Assembly: GCA_019694165.1 (NCBI GenBank)
Contig: JAIBCL010000016.1
Span: 62,001 to 126,000, forward strand
From: Verrucomicrobiaceae bacterium
Lineage (GTDB): Bacteria; Verrucomicrobiota; Verrucomicrobiia; Verrucomicrobiales; Verrucomicrobiaceae
Length of the DNA stretch: 64,000 bases
Direction: 5' to 3'
Part shown: piece after piece, positions 78 to 8,192 of the stretch
How the letters are laid out: each line of letters opens with the position of its first letter
Numbering within the stretch: the stretch's first letter is position 1
Made by a program: the position numbers and the translations under genes
The notes under the pieces: generated by a model
Seen by the model: only the letters and a program-made list of their open reading frames with translations
Told to the model about the DNA's origin: nothing
Database searches by the model: none

Positions 78-773
78 TCAGGACGCGGGTGGCTCCTTCA
101 ACATGTAGCCGTAGCCTCGCGCCGTCTGCAACCACTCCGCGCATCCCCCCAGCTTCTCCCTCAACCGCTTCATGTGGGTGTCCAAGGTCCGGGTGCGGGC
201 CTGGTCGGAGTAGCCCCAGACCTCGCGCAGGATGGTTTCCCGATCGACCACGGCGCCGTTCTTCGTGGCGAGAAGGTGCAGCAGTTTGAATTCGAGAAGT
301 GTCAGCGGCATGATCTCGCCAAGAACCGAGAGCTTCACGTTGGCGAGGTCGAATTCAAACGGCCCGATCTTAAAGCCCGGCTGGGCGGGACCCGGATCAG
401 CACGCCGGAGCAGGCCCTGGACACGGAGCACCAGTTCCTTCGGGCTGAATGGCTTCGCCATGTAGTCGTCGGCTCCCTTTTGCAGTCCGGCGATGCGGTC
501 CTGCGTCTGTCCGCGGGCCGTCAGCATCAAAATAGGGATGCGGGTGGTGACGGGATCCTGCCGCAGCGCCTCGCATGTGCGGAAACCGTCACGGCCCGGC
601 ATCATCACGTCGAGCACGATGGCGGCGGGCAGGCGCTTTTTCGCCCGATCGATGGCCTCCAAGCCGGTCGCGGCCTCGGTGGTCGCGAACCCGGCCTGCT
701 CAAGGTTCAGGCAGACCAGTTCGCGCACATCTTCCTCGTCATCGGCCACGAGGATCAGGGGTTTGTCAGGCAT
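78..773 (-). CDS. OmpR/PhoB-family response regulator
   Basis: This 231-aa protein is a two-domain DNA-binding response regulator acting in the cytoplasm. The receiver domain (about residues 5-118) has the acidic pair D11/D12, the phospho-acceptor D55 in LDVMMPG, T85 and K107 in AKPF. The C-terminal part (about 132-228) is a winged-helix domain with the PhoB-type ending DTHMKRLREKLG. Length and order are normal for the PhoB/PhoP group. The ATG at 773 directly precedes the receiver, so the start is firm. A hydrophobic ORF follows on the same strand and may be its kinase. Nothing in the sequence reveals the signal or target genes, so no specific name is given. Confidence 0.93.
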   Translation of the reverse strand: MPDKPLILVADDEEDVRELVCLNLEQAGFATTEAATGLEAIDRAKKRLPAAIVLDVMMPGRDGFRTCEALRQDPVTTRIPILMLTARGQTQDRIAGLQKGADDYMAKPFSPKELVLRVQGLLRRADPGPAQPGFKIGPFEFDLANVKLSVLGEIMPLTLLEFKLLHLLATKNGAVVDRETILREVWGYSDQARTRTLDTHMKRLREKLGGCAEWLQTARGYGYMLKEPPAS

Positions 774-1331
774 GTGATGCGGGCTGGGTTCGGATGCCGG
801 GCCAGTGTAAGCGCGATGGCTGGTGGAGCGTCAATGCTGATCTGCCCGGCGTTCCGGCTTTTCGCGCAGGGCGATCCAAGCCGTGGTGGCCACACCCGAC
901 AAGACCGCAAAAGTGAACTGTTTGTCACATCGGCCAAACCTGGCGTGGGAGGCCGATCCCGGTCGGTAGTCCCGGGAGCATGAAGTCCGGAGGCCTTTCG
1001 CACCGCTTTTTGCGATGCTGAGAGGCCTCGCAAACTGGTCTCTCGGGGGTTGGATTTTCACGCCGGGAAAAATTTTTCGCGCGCCAGCCCGCATCCCAGC
1101 AAGGATTGGTCGCGATGCGCAGGGTTGGCGGCAAATTTGATCTTGGCGAGCCACAACATCTTGTGCATTATCTTTCCCGCTTTGCCAAGATGTTGTGCAT
1201 TTCTGATGGAATCGCCACGCTACATCCCTTGATTTTCCTGCCCTACAGCCTCGTCCCTCGTCCCAAACTCCCCAAAAACAATTCCCGAAAAAATCCCCCA
1301 ACCTCTCTCAATCCACTGCCCCTCCCCGACC
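774..1331. other. Intergenic region between response regulator and nrdB
   Basis: This 558-base divergent spacer shows no convincing gene. It holds a nested inverted repeat at about 989-1029 (outer arms AGGCCT, inner arms TCGCA/TGCGA), a 12-bp palindrome GAAAAATTTTTC at 1067-1078, and the tandem operator at 1151-1198 described separately. The ORFs that cross it have no family features and overlap one another on both strands. Confidence 0.6.
1151..1198 (+). promoter_or_regulatory. Tandem NrdR boxes upstream of nrdB
   Basis: Two similar imperfect palindromes lie at 1151-1166 (CCACAACATCTTGTGC) and 1183-1198 (TGCCAAGATGTTGTGC). They start 32 bases apart, about three helical turns on the same face. 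NrdR, the ATP-cone repressor of ribonucleotide reductase genes, binds pairs of 16-bp boxes of the ACACwATATATwGTGT type with this spacing. The first box matches that pattern at about 12 of 16 positions and the second at about 10. A weak promoter, TTGGCG at 1143 and CATTAT at 1166 with a 17-base spacer, would be covered by the first box. The repeats and spacing are seen; NrdR binding is inferred. Confidence 0.7.
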
Positions 1332-2414
1332 ATGGAAAAAATCGTCACCATCGGCACCCGCCAGTTCCCCCTCGACTCTGACAAGGCCGAGGCCGCCTAC
1401 GCCGCCAAGAAGGTCATCAACGGACGCAAGTCCATGACCTTCAATCTCCTCCCGCTCCGCTACAAGTGGGCCTACGACCTCTATCGCACGATGAAGGCCA
1501 ACCACTGGGAGCCAGAGGACATCCAGATGCAGAAGGACGTCGAGCAATGGCGCTCGAATGAGATCACCGAGAACGAGCGCTGGATCATCATGATGGGCGT
1601 CGGCTATTTCTCCGCCGCCGAAGGCATCGTGGGCGACAACATCCAGCACGTCATCCGCGAACTGGTGACCGCGCCGGAGCTGAAGCTGGTGCTGGGCCGT
1701 CACGCGCACGAGGAAAACATCCACGCCGACAGCCTGCTGTACATGATTTCCTCCCTCGGCATCAATCCGCACGAGTGCGAGGCCATGTTCGAGCAGATCC
1801 CGACGATCGTGAAGAAGAACGAGTTCGTCACAAAGACCTCGCACGCCCTGCGCCGCGATCTCGACCTGACGAAGCCGGAGAACAAGCAGCTCCTCGCGAA
1901 GAACATCTTCATGTTCGGCCAGTGCATGGAGGGCACGCAGTTCTACGGCCTCTTCGGCATGATCCTGAGCCTGTATCGCCAGAACAAATTCCCCGGCATC
2001 GGCCAGATGTTCCGCTACACGCTGCGCGATGAATCAAATCACATCGAGCTGCTGCGGAACCTTTTCATGGACCTCATCGAGGAGAACCAGGAAATCTGGA
2101 CGCCGGAATTTCGCGAGGAACTGGTGAACACGATGCGCGAAGCCGTGGCGCTGGAGAAGGAATTCATCCGCGACTGCCTCCCGGTGAATGCGGTGGGCCT
2201 CAGCTCCGACGAGTTTGAGCGTTACATCGATTACATCGCCGACCGCCGCCTCGTGGGCTGCGGCCTGCCGGAGTTGAATCCCGGCATCAAGAACTCCCTG
2301 CCCTGGCTCGCCGAGCTCATGGACATCCGGAAGGAGCAAAACTTCTTCGAGGGCAAGGTCACCGACTACAAGAAGTCATCCGCCCTCACGGTCGGCAGCG
2401 ACGAAGACTTCTGA
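1332..2414 (+). CDS. nrdB: Class I ribonucleotide reductase, beta subunit (no radical tyrosine)
   Basis: This 360-aa protein is the metal-containing radical-generating subunit that works with NrdA to make deoxyribonucleotides. The ferritin-like fold and close likeness to the Chlamydia R2 protein are clear (RYKWA near the N-terminus, FFEGKVTDY near the C-terminus). All six metal ligands are present: E97, E128, H131, E200, E234 and H237. E97 replaces the Asp of E. coli-type enzymes, as in Chlamydia. The position of the E. coli radical Tyr (Phe in Chlamydia) is L135, in HADSLL. The cofactor should therefore be a tyrosyl-free Mn/Fe or Mn/Mn centre (class Ic or Id type). The gene lies behind paired NrdR boxes and 160 bases before nrdA, probably as one operon. 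The ATG at 1332 gives the usual family length. No Shine-Dalgarno sequence is visible. Confidence 0.96.
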   Translation: MEKIVTIGTRQFPLDSDKAEAAYAAKKVINGRKSMTFNLLPLRYKWAYDLYRTMKANHWEPEDIQMQKDVEQWRSNEITENERWIIMMGVGYFSAAEGIVGDNIQHVIRELVTAPELKLVLGRHAHEENIHADSLLYMISSLGINPHECEAMFEQIPTIVKKNEFVTKTSHALRRDLDLTKPENKQLLAKNIFMFGQCMEGTQFYGLFGMILSLYRQNKFPGIGQMFRYTLRDESNHIELLRNLFMDLIEENQEIWTPEFREELVNTMREAVALEKEFIRDCLPVNAVGLSSDEFERYIDYIADRRLVGCGLPELNPGIKNSLPWLAELMDIRKEQNFFEGKVTDYKKSSALTVGSDEDF

Positions 2415-2574: not shown

Positions 2575-5500
2575 ATGATCGACAAACTCCTGAACGAAGA
2601 CAAAGCGCTCAAGCGCCTGGCCAAAACCCCCAAGGACCAGAAGCCAAACTACGAATGGAGCGCGCTCGCTGCGGGCGTCTCCGACGGCCCTTCCGCCGTC
2701 AAGGTCAAGATCGGCAATGCCGAGCGTGACTTCGACCTCGGCGAAATCGCCGACACCGTGGGCAATGCGCTCACGGATCTCTTCATCGCCCGCCGTCAGG
2801 AGGAGAAAATCTTCTCGGAGGACAACCAGCAGCTCGTCCAGCTCATCTCCCGCGCCGTGGCGAAGGAACTGCAGCAGACATCCGCCACCTCCGGTGGCGA
2901 CCTCGCCACTCTGAATGCGCACGAGATCTATCAGGTCATCGAGCGCGCGCTCGTGCGCCACAATGCGCACGACGTGGCGCGAAGCATGGTCACGCGCCGG
3001 GATCGTAATGAAAAGAGCGCCGCTCATCAGCCGGCCAGCCCTCAGCCTCTCATGGTCACCACCAAAGTCATCCGCCGCAGCGGCCAGCTCGTCGCCTGGA
3101 ACCACGACAAGATCGAGGTCGCCGTCCGCAAGGCCTTCCTTTCCCTCGAACTCGACTCGTCCCCTGCCGTCACCGTCGCCGAGGCCGTCAGCCGTACCGT
3201 CGCCGATTCTGGCAGCCAGTTCATGCACATCGAGGAGGTCCAGAACCTCGTCGAAGAAGAATTGATGAAGCAGGGCTTCTTCAAGGTCGCCCGCGCCTAC
3301 ATCCAGTACCGTTCGCTGCGCAATCGCCTTCGCGAGACTGAGGCCGAAGCCGCCGAGCAGCAGGCCGTCGCCGAGAGCGAGCTGCAGCAGTCGCTCATCT
3401 TGGTAAAGACCGCCGATGGCAATTCCTTCCTCTGGGATGGCCAGGACCTCAAGAAGCGCGTCGATTTCGCCATGCTCGGCCTCGACCTCTGCCTGCCGCG
3501 CAATGAGATCGAAATGGAACTCCGCCGCTCCATCATCACCGACATCTCCATCGATGACCTGAAGCGCACCATCATCCTGAACTCCCGCACTTTGATGGAG
3601 AAGGACGCCGACTTCGCGAAGTTCGCCGCGCGCATCCTGCTCAGCTACATTTACGAAGAAGTGCTCGGCTGGGACATCGTCCGCGATGGCATCGATCAGC
3701 TCCCGCTCTTCCACCGTCGGGCGTTCAAGAAGAACCTCGCCCGTGGCATCGAGATCGAGCGCCTCGCCCCGCGCCTCCGCGAATACGACCTCGACAAGCT
3801 CGCTGAAGCTCTCGACCCCGCCGCCGACCTCGACTTTGACTTCCTCGGCATCCAGACGCTCTACGATCGCTACCTCATCGTGGACAAGAAGGTGAAGCCC
3901 TCGAAGCGCCTCGAGACGCCGCAGCTCTTCTGGATGCGCGTCGCCATGGGCCTCTGCGTGAAGGAAACCGACGCCGAGGACAAGATCATCGGCCTCTACC
4001 GAGTGTACAAAGGCCGCCGCTTCTGCTCCTCCACGCCCACGCTCTTCAACAGCGGCACGCTCCACACCCAGCTCAGCTCCTGCTACCTCTACAAGGTGGA
4101 CGACAGCATCGAGTCCATCATGATCCGTGGCATCGCGGAGAACGCCTTCCTTTCCAAATGGGCCGGCGGCCTCGGCGGCTCGTGGACCTCCGTCCGCGGC
4201 ACCGGCGGCTACATCAAAGGCACCAATGGCGAGTCACAGGGCGTCATTCCTTTCCTCAAACTGCACAACGACCAGCTCGTGGCCGTCAATCAAGGCGGCA
4301 AGCGCCGCGGCTCCGGCTGCGCGTATCTCGAAGTCTGGCACAACGACATCGAGGACTTCCTCGAGCTGCGCGTGAACACCGGTGACGAACGCCGCCGCAC
4401 GCACGACCTCAACACCGCCAACTGGATCCCCGACCTCTTCATGAAGCGTCTCGAAGAGCGCGGAAACTGGACCCTCTTCCGCGCGAACGAGGTGCCCGAT
4501 CTCCACGACCTCTACGGCTCCGCCTTCGAGAAGCGCTACCACCACTATGAGGCCATGGCCGCTGAAGGAAAAGTCTTCGGCCGCACCGTCGCCGCCCTCG
4601 ATCTCTGGAAGAAGATGCTCAAAGCCATCTTCGAGACCGGTCATCCTTGGATCACCTTCAAGGACCCATGCAACGTCCGCAGCCCGCAGGATCACGTCGG
4701 CGTCATCCACAGCTCAAATCTCTGCACCGAGATCACGCTGAACACGTCCGCCGAAGAGACCGCCGTTTGCAATCTCGGCTCCGTCCTCCTCGACAATCAC
4801 CTCGACGACTCCGGTGGCATCGACCACGCGAAGCTCCGCGAGACCATCCGCATGGCCGTCCGCGTGCTCGATAACGTCATCGACATCAACTACTACCCGA
4901 CCGACGCCGCAAAGACCGCGAACACCCGCCACCGCCCCATCGGCCTCGGCGTCATGGGCTTGCAGTACGCCCTTTATCGCAAAGGCGTCGCCTTCGCCTC
5001 GAAGGAAGCCGTCGAGTTCAACGACGAGATGATGGAAGCCATCGCCTACTACGCGTATGAAGCCTCCAGCGACCTCGCCGCCGAGCGTGGCACCTACTCC
5101 ACCTACAAAGGCAGCAAGTGGGACCGCGGCCTCCTCCCGCAGGACACCGTCGATCTCCTCGCCCAGGAGCGCGGCCTCGACATCGACGTCCCACGCGGCG
5201 GCAAGATGGACTGGTCCGGCCTTCGCGAGAAGATCAAGAAGAACGGCATGAGGAACTCCAACGTCCTCGCCATCGCCCCCACCGCCACCATCTCGAACAT
5301 CATGGGCTCCAGCCCTTGCATCGAGCCCCTCTTCACCAATCTCTACACCAAGAGCAATCTCTCCGGCGACTTCACCGTGCTGAACTGGTTCCTCATCAAG
5401 GACCTCAAGAAGCGCGGCCTCTGGACCCCCGAGATCCAGAACAAGCTCAAGTACACGGACGGCGAGCTCGAGAGCATCGAAGAGATCCCGTACGACTTGA

Positions 5501-5859
5501 AGCGCAAATACGCCACCGCCTTCAGCATCGACTGGGCCTGGGTCATCGACGCCGCCGCGCGCCGCCAGAAATGGATCGACCAAAGCCAGTCCGTGAATCT
5601 CTTCTTCGGCGGCACCGAGATGACCACCCTCAGCCAGATGTACCGCGGCGCCTGGCGGAAAGGTCTCAAGACCACCTACTACCTCCGCACGAGAAGCGCC
5701 TCGAACATCGAGAAAGCCACCTCCGAAGTGCAGAAGGAGATGCGCGGTCACGTCGGCGAAACCGCCGCCGCCGCCAAACGCGAATACACCGCCGAAGAAA
5801 CCCTGGCCTGCTCCATCGAGGCCATGCGGAACGGCGGGACGTGTGAGGCGTGTCAGTAG
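2575..5859 (+). CDS. nrdA: Class I ribonucleotide reductase, alpha subunit with ATP-cone extension
   Basis: This 1094-aa catalytic subunit reduces ribonucleotides to deoxyribonucleotides. A typical ATP-cone (allosteric dATP/ATP switch) spans about residues 161-250. The preceding 1-150 looks like a diverged further cone, because it ends in IYQVIERALVRHNAHDVA. Expected active-site residues are visible: C503 in SSCYLY, N715, C717 and E719 in SSNLCTE, C732 in AVCNLGS, the tyrosine pair Y1035/Y1036 for radical transfer, and the C-terminal re-reduction pair C1090/C1093 (CEAC). The long N-terminus resembles the multi-cone enzymes of Chlamydia. It pairs with the unusual NrdB upstream. The ATG at 2575 is used because it begins the continuous charged leader; an internal ATG at residue 160 would remove only the first cone-like segment. 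Confidence 0.96.
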   Translation: MIDKLLNEDKALKRLAKTPKDQKPNYEWSALAAGVSDGPSAVKVKIGNAERDFDLGEIADTVGNALTDLFIARRQEEKIFSEDNQQLVQLISRAVAKELQQTSATSGGDLATLNAHEIYQVIERALVRHNAHDVARSMVTRRDRNEKSAAHQPASPQPLMVTTKVIRRSGQLVAWNHDKIEVAVRKAFLSLELDSSPAVTVAEAVSRTVADSGSQFMHIEEVQNLVEEELMKQGFFKVARAYIQYRSLRNRLRETEAEAAEQQAVAESELQQSLILVKTADGNSFLWDGQDLKKRVDFAMLGLDLCLPRNEIEMELRRSIITDISIDDLKRTIILNSRTLMEKDADFAKFAARILLSYIYEEVLGWDIVRDGIDQLPLFHRRAFKKNLARGIEIERLAPRLREYDLDKLAEALDPAADLDFDFLGIQTLYDRYLIVDKKVKPSKRLETPQLFWMRVAMGLCVKETDAEDKIIGLYRVYKGRRFCSSTPTLFNSGTLHTQLSSCYLYKVDDSIESIMIRGIAENAFLSKWAGGLGGSWTSVRGTGGYIKGTNGESQGVIPFLKLHNDQLVAVNQGGKRRGSGCAYLEVWHNDIEDFLELRVNTGDERRRTHDLNTANWIPDLFMKRLEERGNWTLFRANEVPDLHDLYGSAFEKRYHHYEAMAAEGKVFGRTVAALDLWKKMLKAIFETGHPWITFKDPCNVRSPQDHVGVIHSSNLCTEITLNTSAEETAVCNLGSVLLDNHLDDSGGIDHAKLRETIRMAVRVLDNVIDINYYPTDAAKTANTRHRPIGLGVMGLQYALYRKGVAFASKEAVEFNDEMMEAIAYYAYEASSDLAAERGTYSTYKGSKWDRGLLPQDTVDLLAQERGLDIDVPRGGKMDWSGLREKIKKNGMRNSNVLAIAPTATISNIMGSSPCIEPLFTNLYTKSNLSGDFTVLNWFLIKDLKKRGLWTPEIQNKLKYTDGELESIEEIPYDLKRKYATAFSIDWAWVIDAAARRQKWIDQSQSVNLFFGGTEMTTLSQMYRGAWRKGLKTTYYLRTRSASNIEKATSEVQKEMRGHVGETAAAAKREYTAEETLACSIEAMRNGGTCEACQ

Positions 5860-5870
5860 CGCCTCACCCC

Positions 5871-5898
5871 GGACCAGTCTGACTCGTCAGACTGGTCC
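5871..5898 (+). repeat. Perfect 12-bp hairpin after nrdA
   Basis: GGACCAGTCTGA at 5871-5882 and its exact reverse complement at 5887-5898 enclose a CTCG loop, 11 bases after the nrdA stop codon. It could end nrdA transcription, but no T-run follows. It belongs to the GTCxGAC-type repeat cluster that also brackets the next gene, so a repeat-element origin is equally likely. Confidence 0.7.
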
Positions 5899-5912
5899 GA
5901 CCCGTCAGACCG
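5899..5912 (+). repeat. Left copy of 14-bp direct repeat flanking the four-helix gene
   Basis: The string GACCCGTCAGACCG occurs here and again, identical and in the same orientation, at 6716-6729. The two copies bracket the four-helix-bundle gene at 5937-6671. Each copy sits beside a small hairpin: GGACCAGTCTGA here, and GTCCGA/TCGGAC on the right. Confidence 0.75.
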
Positions 5913-5936
5913 TTCGGCCAAAAACCTCCCACCACC

Positions 5937-6671
5937 ATGCCCGCGGACCCCGACAGCCCACTGCTGCCACACGGGGGCTACGAAAAGCTGCGCAGCTACG
6001 CCGTCGCCGAGGCGGTCTATGACGCCACCGTCGTCTTCTGTGACCGCTTCATCGACAAAGAAAGCCGCACCCACGACCAAATGATCCAGGCCGCCCGCAG
6101 CGGCGTCCGAAACATCTCCGAAGGCAGCGGAGCCGCCGCCACCTCGCGGAAGATGGAGATGAAGCTCACCAACGTCGCCCGCGCCAGCCTCAACGACGAG
6201 CTGGCCAAGGACTACAAGAGCTTCCTCATCCAACGCGGCCTCCGCGTCTGGCCCAAAGAATCCCGCCAGTGCCTCGCCATGCGAGAGCGCCTCAAGCACG
6301 ACGTCTTTCCAAATCTCCCGGCAGCCCCCAAAGGCAAGATCATCCTCACCGGTTTAGCCGGACTCGCCGACTTCGTAGCCAAGGCCGATCCCGAATTCGC
6401 GGCCAACGCCATGCTCTGCGCCGTGAACCAAGCCTCGTATCTGCTCAAAAAGCAGATCGAAAGCCAGAGCCGCGACTTCAAAGAACACGGCGGCTTCACC
6501 GAACGCCTCCACGCCTCCCGCATCAAAGCCCGCGCCGCCCAAGCCGGCATACCCGAGTGTCCGCTCTGTGGGAAACCCATGCGCCGCCGCACCGCCGGAA
6601 AAACCTCCTCCGAGTTCTGGGGCTGCTCCGCCTATCCCAACTGCAAAGGCACCAAAGACATCCAGGCCTGA
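5937..6671 (+). CDS. Four-helix-bundle protein with C-terminal C4 zinc-finger suffix
   Basis: This 244-aa protein joins two parts. Residues about 10-110 match the four-helix-bundle family first known from 23S intervening sequences and related to the Avd accessory protein (MIQAARSGVRNISEG, then RKMEMKLTNVARASLNDELAKDY). Residues about 208-236 form a topoisomerase-type C4 zinc ribbon: C208 and C211, then C230 and C236 in GCSAYPNCKG. A four-helix 'suffix' domain family of this kind is known. The zinc part suggests nucleic-acid binding; the actual role is unknown. It is not inside a 23S gene and no diversity-generating reverse transcriptase is nearby. It is bracketed by identical 14-bp repeats, as a small cassette would be. 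The ATG at 5937 directly precedes the conserved helices. Confidence 0.8.
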   Translation: MPADPDSPLLPHGGYEKLRSYAVAEAVYDATVVFCDRFIDKESRTHDQMIQAARSGVRNISEGSGAAATSRKMEMKLTNVARASLNDELAKDYKSFLIQRGLRVWPKESRQCLAMRERLKHDVFPNLPAAPKGKIILTGLAGLADFVAKADPEFAANAMLCAVNQASYLLKKQIESQSRDFKEHGGFTERLHASRIKARAAQAGIPECPLCGKPMRRRTAGKTSSEFWGCSAYPNCKGTKDIQA

Positions 6672-6729: not shown

Positions 6730-7699
6730 ACCGCCGCTCACACCTCTTCCGAATCACCTCCAGGATCGAGCCCTGCACCTGGGCCATTACCCACTCGCTC
6801 CACCAACCCGTGTACCAATTGAACCGCGTGGATAAACGATGGGTGCTCGAGAGATGCAAAACGCATGAGCCGTCACTCTTCGGCTCGATCTCATAGGCCC
6901 CATCCAGCACATTGTAAAAGCGACCACCCACGATCACGTGTTGATCGAAAGCTGTGTGCGGAATGAAATCTGGATCCGCCTTGATGGTGAACGACAGCTT
7001 CTTCTCCGGCTCCCAATTGGTGACCACTTCAAAAAACGAAACATCCCGCTCAAACGTGGCGTGACGTCGCCCTCCGACGCCTTGTCTGTCGATCGTCGCC
7101 GCGATCGGTCTCGGAAATCCCAAAAGATAAATCCACTGCTCCGGCAGTTCCTCCCTCTGGATGGCAGGAACCTCATAGATGTGTCTCCAAATCGTTTTGG
7201 CGTCGGCATGGATGAGCACCGAGTCGTGCATTACGCGCTGCTCGTGCGGCTCCTTCCACACCTGCTCGAGGGGAGACATCGCCAATGGCAGCAAAACGAA
7301 CAAATTCACCATCATCCGGCCTCGGTCGCTGAAATAGAGGAGAATGAAGTGCATCACCATTCCTCCGAAGATCGATGCTGGAATGACCACCGGCGCAGAA
7401 ACAACCGCGCACATCAACGCCTCCAGTTTCACCGCCACCGCACCGATCATCAGCACGAGCATCGTCAATGGCGGCGCTCCCAGCGCCCAAAAGAGCCGGG
7501 GCCGGTCAAACCTGTTTCCAAGATAGCAAATCAGCGCCCCCGAGCTGATCGGCACCGTCCAGACAAACGCGATTGAAACAATCTGAAGCCAACCCTCAAG
7601 CGGCTGCGCCGCAAACAGCAGTCGAAGCGCCAGCGCATACGCAGCAGCGACCCCGAAGATGATCGCAAAACTCCGCCACCGCCCTGGGCCGTCACTCAT
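6722..7699 (-). CDS. Membrane protein with C-terminal SRPBCC/START-like domain
   Basis: This 325-aa protein has four or five hydrophobic segments in roughly the first 145 residues (for example FAIIFGVAAAYALALRLLF and MMVNLFVLLPLAMSPL). A soluble part of about 170 residues follows. It begins VLIHADAKTIWRHI, continues with FFEVVTNWEPEKKLSFTI and ends in a long amphipathic helix. That pattern is typical of the SRPBCC (START/polyketide-cyclase-like) ligand-binding fold. The ligand and role cannot be read from the sequence. The start codon overlaps the divergent transposase start by two bases. The last residues are contributed by the repeat at 6716-6729, so the original C-terminus may have been altered. 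Confidence 0.7.
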   Translation of the reverse strand: MSDGPGRWRSFAIIFGVAAAYALALRLLFAAQPLEGWLQIVSIAFVWTVPISSGALICYLGNRFDRPRLFWALGAPPLTMLVLMIGAVAVKLEALMCAVVSAPVVIPASIFGGMVMHFILLYFSDRGRMMVNLFVLLPLAMSPLEQVWKEPHEQRVMHDSVLIHADAKTIWRHIYEVPAIQREELPEQWIYLLGFPRPIAATIDRQGVGGRRHATFERDVSFFEVVTNWEPEKKLSFTIKADPDFIPHTAFDQHVIVGGRFYNVLDGAYEIEPKSDGSCVLHLSSTHRLSTRFNWYTGWWSEWVMAQVQGSILEVIRKRCERRSV

Positions 7700-8192
7700 G
7701 ACCGCAGGACTAGAGTATATCCATCATCCGGTCCAACTGAAACCACAGCCGCTCTCCCTGGTCATTGTGCATCTCGTCTTCTCCACCAAAGACCGCGAAC
7801 CCTGGCTGACTCCCGCCATCCGTCCGCGACTCCACGCCTACCTCGCCGAGGTCGCCCGCGGACATGGTTGCATGGCCTACCGCGTGGGCGGCGTGTCCGA
7901 TCACATGCATCTCGCCCTGTCCCTGCCGCGAACCCTCACGCAAAGCGATCTCGTGAAGGAACTCAAAACGACCTCGAACCACTGGCTCGAAAAACAGGAC
8001 AAAGCCTTCACCGCCTTTGCCTGGCAACGCGGCTACGGTCTCTTCTCCATCGGCAAATCCCAGCTCCCCGCCCTCACCCGATACATCGACGATCAAGAAG
8101 ACCACCACCGCACCCGCACCTTTCAGGACGAATACCGCGCCATGCTCACCAAGTACGGCATCGCCTACGACGAAGCGCATGTGTGGGATTGA
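7698..8192 (+). CDS. Y1 (IS200/RAYT-type) tyrosine transposase
   Basis: This 164-aa protein belongs to the HUH single-strand transposase family that cuts and joins DNA hairpins. The metal-binding HUH motif is H69-M-H71 in SDHMHLAL. The likely catalytic tyrosine is Y129 in RYIDDQEDHH. The N-terminus (LVIVHLVFSTKDREPWL) is typical. An in-frame upstream ATG at 7659 would add 13 residues inside the divergent membrane gene, so 7698 is preferred. No IS605-type TnpB partner is present. Its size, solitary state and the palindromic repeats nearby (10.35-10.46 kb) suggest a REP-associated transposase (RAYT) or a lone IS200-like element. All catalytic residues are intact. Confidence 0.88.
   Translation: MTAGLEYIHHPVQLKPQPLSLVIVHLVFSTKDREPWLTPAIRPRLHAYLAEVARGHGCMAYRVGGVSDHMHLALSLPRTLTQSDLVKELKTTSNHWLEKQDKAFTAFAWQRGYGLFSIGKSQLPALTRYIDDQEDHHRTRTFQDEYRAMLTKYGIAYDEAHVWD

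What the first reader, a model, noticed from the sequence alone, without database searches (positions are those of the whole stretch)
1740..1743. NrdB lacks the radical tyrosine: Leu at residue 135
All six carboxylate/His ligands are conserved (E97, E128, H131, E200, E234, H237). The residue that is Tyr in class Ia/Ib and Phe in Chlamydia class Ic is Leu. With E97 replacing Asp, this predicts a Mn/Fe or Mn/Mn cofactor without tyrosyl radical, in a verrucomicrobial branch of the Chlamydia-like group. Class Ie is excluded because its ligand set is altered.
Basis: partly seen in the sequence, partly recalled or inferred. Interest (0 to 1): 0.7.

Follow-up and report, generated by a model that had tools for sequence, protein, structure and literature searches.

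The report
Ribonucleotide reductase lacking its radical tyrosine
The only DNA-building-block enzyme in this Verrucomicrobia genome lacks the tyrosine that usually carries its radical, so it most likely stores the radical on a manganese-iron centre as the Chlamydia enzyme does; that kind is already known, but this leucine version forms a large, separate and untested branch.

Summary
NrdB is window 1332-2414. All six ligands are present, and the radical-tyrosine position is Leu135, encoded by CTG at 1734-1736. The reported 1740-1743 covers Tyr137.

This NrdB/NrdA pair is the only ribonucleotide reductase found in the genome, so the Leu enzyme should work in vivo. The same holds in 11 of 15 relatives checked. 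Leu is invariant in about 140 relatives. Glu as first ligand goes with Leu/Phe and Asp with Tyr, without exception, in 273 distinct sequences.

The class Ic signature is complete: E,E,H,E,E,H plus second-sphere Glu and Asp, and intact radical-transfer residues. I therefore predict a Mn(IV)/Fe(III) oxidant without a tyrosyl radical. A Mn/Mn class Id cofactor is less likely.

This is not a branch of the Chlamydia group. Chlamydia-type Phe enzymes group with Tyr enzymes instead (98/93; AU p = 0.018), and the Leu clade has its own gene order (nrdB-nrdA) and fixed second-shell residues such as Thr230. The clade also occurs in Armatimonadota and Rhodothermota.

RNRdb practice already accepts Leu as class Ic. 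Verdict: a new member of a known kind, in an uncharacterised lineage. The metal is untested.

The parts
1332..2414 (+). nrdB: radical-generating R2 subunit, 360 aa, Leu at the radical-tyrosine position
   Evidence: Pfam PF00268 E 1e-68; NCBIfam NF005550 325.6 bits, over its 309 cut-off; best PDB relative C. trachomatis R2, E 2.7e-75
1734..1736 (+). codon of Leu135, the position of the radical Tyr in class Ia/Ib and of Phe127 in C. trachomatis
1740..1742 (+). codon of Tyr137, the reported coordinates; aligns with C. trachomatis Tyr129 and is replaced by His in some relatives
1620..1622 (+). metal ligand E97 (Glu in place of the class Ia/Ib Asp)
1713..1715 (+). metal ligand E128 (E127 before it is the class Ic second-sphere Glu)
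1722..1724 (+). metal ligand H131
1929..1931 (+). metal ligand E200
2031..2033 (+). metal ligand E234
2040..2042 (+). metal ligand H237
1506..1508 (+). Trp59 (C. trachomatis Trp51, E. coli Trp48), radical-transfer residue
   Evidence: invariant
2016..2018 (+). Tyr229 (C. trachomatis Tyr222)
   Evidence: 100% in the Leu clade sample
2019..2021 (+). Thr230, fixed in the Leu clade where class Ic and Tyr-bearing relatives have Ile/Val
   Evidence: 141 of 142 E/L sequences, the exception being L172
2028..2030 (+). Asp233, second-sphere and radical-transfer Asp (E. coli Asp237)
   Evidence: invariant
2367..2369 (+). Tyr346 (C. trachomatis Tyr338, E. coli Tyr356), C-terminal radical-transfer Tyr
   Evidence: invariant
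2575..5859 (+). nrdA: catalytic R1 subunit, 1094 aa, with ATP cone (residues 164-250), NLCTE (C717), tandem Tyr 1035-1036 (TTYYLR) and C-terminal CEAC
   Evidence: Pfam PF02867 E 2e-188, PF00317, PF03477; motifs
1152..1165 (.). NrdR-box-like dyad 1, CACAACATCTTGTG
1184..1197 (.). NrdR-box-like dyad 2, GCCAAGATGTTGTG, 32 bp downstream of dyad 1
   Evidence: NrdR gene present elsewhere in the genome

Best explanation
The gene pair is a working class I ribonucleotide reductase of the class Ic mechanistic type. NrdB binds two metals with E97, E128, H131, E200, E234 and H237. Reaction with oxygen (or peroxide) should leave a high-valent Mn(IV)/Fe(III) pair that itself holds the one-electron hole, since Leu135 cannot be oxidised. 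For each turnover the hole moves over Trp59/Asp233 and Tyr346 to the tandem Tyr of NrdA and on to its catalytic Cys717, and then returns. Shown here: the residues, their conservation, the sole-enzyme status, and the fold. Inferred from characterised relatives: the Mn/Fe identity, the oxidation states, and the order of transfer.
For: Ligand and second-sphere pattern E,E,H,E,E,H + E,D equals the published class Ic (NrdBzc) pattern. Radical-transfer residues are intact in NrdB and NrdA. The nearest solved structures are all C. trachomatis Mn/Fe NrdB, by sequence (E 2.7e-75) and by fold (model pLDDT 86.3, Z 42, 38% identity). Glu1 with Leu/Phe and Asp1 with Tyr in 273 of 273 distinct sequences with both residues at intact sites. 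Only RNR found in the genome: one PF00268, one PF02867, no PF13597; 11 of 15 relatives likewise have one R1 and no class III. RNRdb assigns Phe, Leu or Val at this site to class Ic (PMC6370689).
Against: No metal or EPR data exist for any member of this clade in the papers I could read. The Leu clade lies outside the Chlamydia-type clade, and about 40 positions fixed in it differ from class Ic, several next to ligands (Y92, H126, N129, T202, Q203, T230). The cofactor may therefore differ. No coordinates were available to measure distances.
Confidence: 0.68

Rival explanations
1. Class Id-like: a dimanganese Mn(IV)/Mn(III) cofactor made with superoxide stores the hole.
For: First ligand Glu, as in class Id. 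Thr230 lies four residues before the fifth ligand, the same offset as F. johnsoniae Thr191 before E195 (PMC8463856; ligand numbers in PMC6370689). Class Ic and the Tyr-bearing relatives have Ile or Val there.
Against: Class Id keeps a Tyr at the radical site and needs it for activity; here it is Leu. Class Id has Cys/Ser before the second ligand; here Glu127. Its Lys (E67+4) is Gly101 here, and the NrdBi Trp seven residues after the first ligand (PMC6754362) is Ile104 here. Class Id structures match the model less well (Z 33, 14-20% identity) than Chlamydia NrdB (Z 42, 38%).
Confidence: 0.14
2. Iron-only: a high-valent Fe(III)/Fe(IV) pair or a protein radical formed at another residue in a diiron enzyme initiates catalysis.
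For: Ligand sets of diiron and Mn/Fe proteins are the same, so sequence cannot tell the metals apart (PMC4118035). Diiron C. trachomatis R2 forms a stable Fe(III)Fe(IV) state (reference titles).
Against: In the characterised tyrosine-less enzyme Mn/Fe gives the maximal activity (PMC8463856). The Glu first ligand goes with the Mn-using subclasses.
Confidence: 0.1
3. A neighbouring Tyr, such as Tyr137 at the reported coordinates, carries the radical.
For: Tyr137 is conserved in most of the clade and lies two residues from Leu135.
Against: It aligns with C. trachomatis Tyr129, present in an enzyme without a stable Tyr radical. It is also present beside the true radical Tyr in D/Y/Y enzymes. It is His in the Akkermansiaceae-type R2s (L063, L155-L158), which keep every ligand and Tyr346. 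Two residues along a helix place it on another face (inference).
Confidence: 0.05
4. The gene is inactive or an auxiliary R2, so the missing Tyr has no catalytic meaning.
For: Degenerate R2 paralogues do exist in relatives (L152, L145).
Against: This copy has every ligand and transfer residue, and no other RNR was found in a genome 96% complete. It sits beside intact nrdA behind NrdR-like boxes.
Confidence: 0.02

Closest known systems
Class Ic R2 of Chlamydia trachomatis (NrdBzc; PDB 1syy, 4d8f, 4m1i)
   Same: Six ligands with Glu first, second-sphere Glu and Asp, redox-inert residue for the radical Tyr, Trp51/Tyr222/Tyr338 equivalents, same fold (Z 42)
   Different: Leu instead of Phe; about 38% identity; nrdB-nrdA instead of nrdA-nrdB; Thr230 for Ile223, His126 for Phe118, Asn129 for Ala121, Gln203 for Phe196; separate clade
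RNRdb NrdBz group, subgroups NrdBza (Tyr, class Ia) and NrdBzc (Phe, Leu or Val, class Ic)
   Same: The published rule puts Leu at this site in NrdBzc
   Different: The Leu clade branches outside the Phe and Tyr enzymes sampled here; whether RNRdb places these sequences in NrdBz was not checked
Class Id R2 (F. johnsoniae, L. blandensis, F. ignava; NrdBi)
   Same: Glu first ligand; Thr four residues before the fifth ligand
   Different: No Tyr at the radical site, no Lys after the first ligand, no NrdBi Trp, Glu instead of Cys/Ser before the second ligand
Cyano SP phage R2 (proposed class If)
   Same: No radical Tyr; E,E,H,E,E,H ligands
   Different: Second-sphere Asp instead of Glu (PMC6370689)

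Membership tests
Class I RNR radical-generating subunit (R2) | R2 fold and family profile | tested here: met
   PF00268 E 1e-68; fold Z 42 to NrdB structures
Class I RNR radical-generating subunit (R2) | Partner NrdA with tandem Tyr, catalytic Cys and C-terminal Cys pair; C-terminal Tyr in R2 | tested here: met
   NLCTE, TTYYLR and CEAC in the adjacent gene; Tyr346 invariant
Class Ic | Phe, Leu or Val at the radical-Tyr site | tested here: met
   Leu135; rule quoted in PMC6370689
Class Ic | Ligands E,E,H,E,E,H with second-sphere E and D | tested here: met
   E97, E128, H131, E200, E234, H237, E127, D233 (table)
Class Ic | Common descent with the C. trachomatis enzyme to the exclusion of Tyr-bearing R2s | tested here: not met
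   Chlamydia type groups with Tyr enzymes 98/93; AU p 0.018, 0.046 on NrdB alone. Common descent is not part of the residue-based RNRdb rule, and an earlier study found R2c polyphyletic (cited in PMC3824934)
Class Ic | Active Mn(IV)/Fe(III) cofactor | not testable with these tools
   Needs purified protein, metal analysis and EPR or Moessbauer
Class Ia/Ib | Radical Tyr with Asp first ligand | tested here: not met
   Leu135 and Glu97
Class Id | Tyr/Glu pairing, Lys after the first ligand, Cys/Ser before the second ligand | tested here: not met
   Leu135, Gly101, Glu127 (features)
Class Ie | Metal carboxylates replaced | tested here: not met
   All four Glu ligands present (class Ie pattern)
Class Ib | NrdI partner | tested here: inconclusive
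   One match below Pfam's cut-off inside a 587-aa frame elsewhere in the genome; none near nrdB

The most novel reading that the evidence does not exclude
The Leu clade is a separate origin of a tyrosine-less, metal-oxidant R2, with its own second shell (Thr230, His126, Asn129, Gln203) and a cofactor or activation chemistry different from both class Ic and class Id, deserving its own subclass.
Probability: 0.2. Interest if true: 0.7.

Novelty: new member of a known kind. Interest (0 to 1): 0.36.

Why it matters
Metal-oxidant RNR chemistry rests largely on one characterised protein, from C. trachomatis. This clade offers about 140 tyrosine-less R2s with an aliphatic residue at the site, many in free-living bacteria where it is the sole RNR. 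It gives a separate test of what sets Mn/Fe use: the Glu first ligand, the lost Tyr, or the second shell. If confirmed, tyrosine loss happened more than once and class Ic is a mechanistic type, not one lineage.

Tried and rejected
1) Nesting in the Chlamydia group: not supported. With NrdB alone, holding the Leu clade with all Phe enzymes or with the haloarchaeal type is not rejected (p 0.116 and 0.176), so the exact sister group is open. 2) Another Tyr at the radical site: the only Tyr close by in sequence is Tyr137, in the Tyr129 column of Chlamydia. 3) Sequencing error or one-off variant: invariant across the clade. 4) A second RNR making this copy dispensable: none found. 6) Phage or plasmid origin of the Leu clade: no record above 60% identity; best phage and plasmid hits are 34-39% identical, and those read are Tyr or Phe types. 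7) Hogbom 2010, the source for Leu/Ile/Val in R2c, is not held, so it is cited through PMC3824934. 8) A first call on this report failed for missing fields.

Full report
What is there. Window 1332-2414 (+) encodes a 360-aa ribonucleotide reductase small subunit (NrdB, R2), followed at 2575-5859 by the large subunit NrdA (1094 aa; ATP cone, N-terminal and barrel domains). Translating the codons gives E97, E128, H131, E200, E234 and H237 as ligands and Leu at 135, codon CTG 1734-1736. The reported coordinates 1740-1743 cover codon 137, a Tyr. In local alignment with C. trachomatis R2, L135 sits in the column of F127 and Y137 in that of Y129; the F127Y mutant structure 2ani confirms the register.

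More than chance. In a draw of 288 genomes of the phylum, the family of close relatives (70-87% identical) shows HEENIHADSLLYM or a near variant, always with Leu. Named relatives include Prosthecobacter, Verrucomicrobium, Geminisphaera, Pelagicoccus, Haloferula, Cerasicoccus and Persicirhabdus, but also Fimbriimonadaceae and the complete genome of Roseithermus sacchariphilus. Surveys of those other phyla found further members, so the clade has spread beyond Verrucomicrobia. Some MAG labels (Patulibacter, Bacteroidia, Chlamydiae) may be misbinned and are not relied on. Over all distinct sequences collected, the first ligand and the radical site pair perfectly: Glu with Leu 142, Glu with Phe 65, Asp with Tyr 66, no crossover among intact sites. 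The sample was gathered by similarity to this protein and contains no class Id enzyme, which is the known Glu/Tyr case.

Is it a working enzyme? The genome (96% complete) has one PF00268 match, one PF02867 match and no anaerobic NrdD, so no other class I, II or III RNR was found. Of 15 relatives checked, 11 also have a single R1 and no NrdD, including two genomes of about 0.9 Mb. NrdA keeps NLCTE, TTYYLR and the C-terminal CEAC. NrdB keeps Trp59, Asp233, Tyr229 and Tyr346. Two dyads of the form CACAA-N4-TTGTG lie 32 bp apart at 1152-1165 and 1184-1197; 69 of 89 relatives have at least one such dyad upstream of nrdB and 18 have a pair at 28-35 bp, against 0.05 pairs expected after shuffling. 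They resemble the tandem boxes of NrdR (from my own knowledge), and the genome has NrdR. Together this says the Leu enzyme supplies the cell's deoxynucleotides.

Mechanism. The published class Ic pattern, E,E,H,E,E,H with second-sphere Glu and Asp (PMC6370689), is matched exactly. The predicted structure (mean pLDDT 86.3) matches C. trachomatis NrdB best (Z 42, 38% identity), class Id structures less (Z about 33). By analogy with C. trachomatis, where a Mn(IV)/Fe(III) cofactor replaces the Tyr radical (PMC8463856; PMC11883743), the hole most likely resides on Mn. The metal is inferred: diiron, dimanganese and Mn/Fe proteins share ligand sets, so sequence cannot decide (PMC4118035).

Where it belongs. 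The NrdB tree gives a Leu clade with full support (100/100) on a long stem. NrdA agrees (100/100). The concatenated tree puts Chlamydia-type Phe enzymes with Tyr-bearing enzymes, apart from the Leu clade and the haloarchaeal type (98/93). Holding the Leu clade with the Chlamydia type costs 10.6 log units (AU p 0.018). The raw columns agree: consensus residues shared by the Chlamydia type and the Tyr type against the Leu clade number 52, those shared by the Leu clade and the Chlamydia type 8, and those shared by the Leu clade and the Tyr type 4. Gene order is nrdB-nrdA in all 82 intact Leu-clade loci where it could be read and nrdA-nrdB in all 28 Phe loci. The root and the exact sister group remain unsettled. 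A second, independent Leu occurs inside the Chlamydia type: a Thermomicrobiales R2 (L172), sister to a Rubrobacter Phe enzyme with 100/100 support and nrdA-nrdB order. Phe and Leu therefore look interchangeable at this site, which fits a site that only has to be redox-inert.

Second shell. About 40 positions are fixed in the Leu clade and fixed differently in class Ic. Thr230, four residues before the fifth ligand, is found in 141 of 142 Glu/Leu sequences and in no Phe or Tyr enzyme of the sample; the exception is L172. F. johnsoniae class Id has Thr191 at the same offset, where it holds the Tyr away from the metals (PMC8463856). This shared residue is the best reason to keep a Mn/Mn rival open, but the class Id Tyr, Lys, Trp and Cys/Ser marks are missing.

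Novelty. Leu at this site is already documented for R2c: PMC3824934 citing Hogbom 2010, and the RNRdb rule Phe, Leu or Val equals Ic (PMC6370689). The finding is therefore a new member of a known kind. What I did not find described, in the papers searched, is the size, separate descent, reversed gene order and own second shell of this clade. Most subscription papers were not searchable.

Noticed in passing
L152 3720-4934 (Persicirhabdus sediminis, NZ_JAENIM010000008.1): A second R2-like protein directly upstream of the intact Leu R2 has lost its metal site (E97Q, H131R, E234V, H237R) and Tyr346 but still matches PF00268 (E 7e-51). It resembles the yeast Rnr4 situation, a metal-free partner subunit.
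   Followed up: partly
L145 487-2916 (Verrucomicrobiaceae MAG CANJVS010000115.1): Two R2 domains in one frame of 810 codons; the second lacks E97, E128, H131, E200 and H237. The same MAG has a separate normal R2.
   Followed up: partly
L057 7205-8290 and L060 (+ strand 4998-6245): Tandem second R2 beside the normal one: all six ligands and Leu kept, but Tyr137 is His and Tyr229 is Asn, so the radical path may differ.
   Followed up: partly
L172 4857-5993: Independent Leu at the radical site inside the Chlamydia-type class Ic clade (Thermomicrobiales MAG), with Ile at the Thr230 position.
   Followed up: yes
L247, L248, L250, L253, L255: R2s from genomes of the Rhodothermota/Bacteroidota survey with a Glu/Phe pairing but Met before the second ligand, far from class Ic on the tree; a possible further independent loss of the radical Tyr.
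   Followed up: no
L274, L296-L299: Glu/Phe R2s from the Armatimonadota and Actinomycetota surveys with Trp in place of the activation Tyr (Tyr222 in C. trachomatis), on a separate long branch.
   Followed up: no
L213 and L210: Viral R2 genes with long insertions at the EExxH and radical-Tyr motif that look like inteins.
   Followed up: no
window 5937-6671 (+): ORF downstream of nrdA: a 23S rRNA-intervening-sequence-like four-helix part (weak, below the Pfam cut-off) ending in a topoisomerase C4 zinc ribbon (PF01396).
   Followed up: partly
window 81-773 (-): OmpR-type response regulator (PF00072 + PF00486), divergently transcribed upstream of nrdB.
   Followed up: partly
window 7659-8192 (+): IS200-type transposase (Y1_Tnp, PF01797).
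   Followed up: partly
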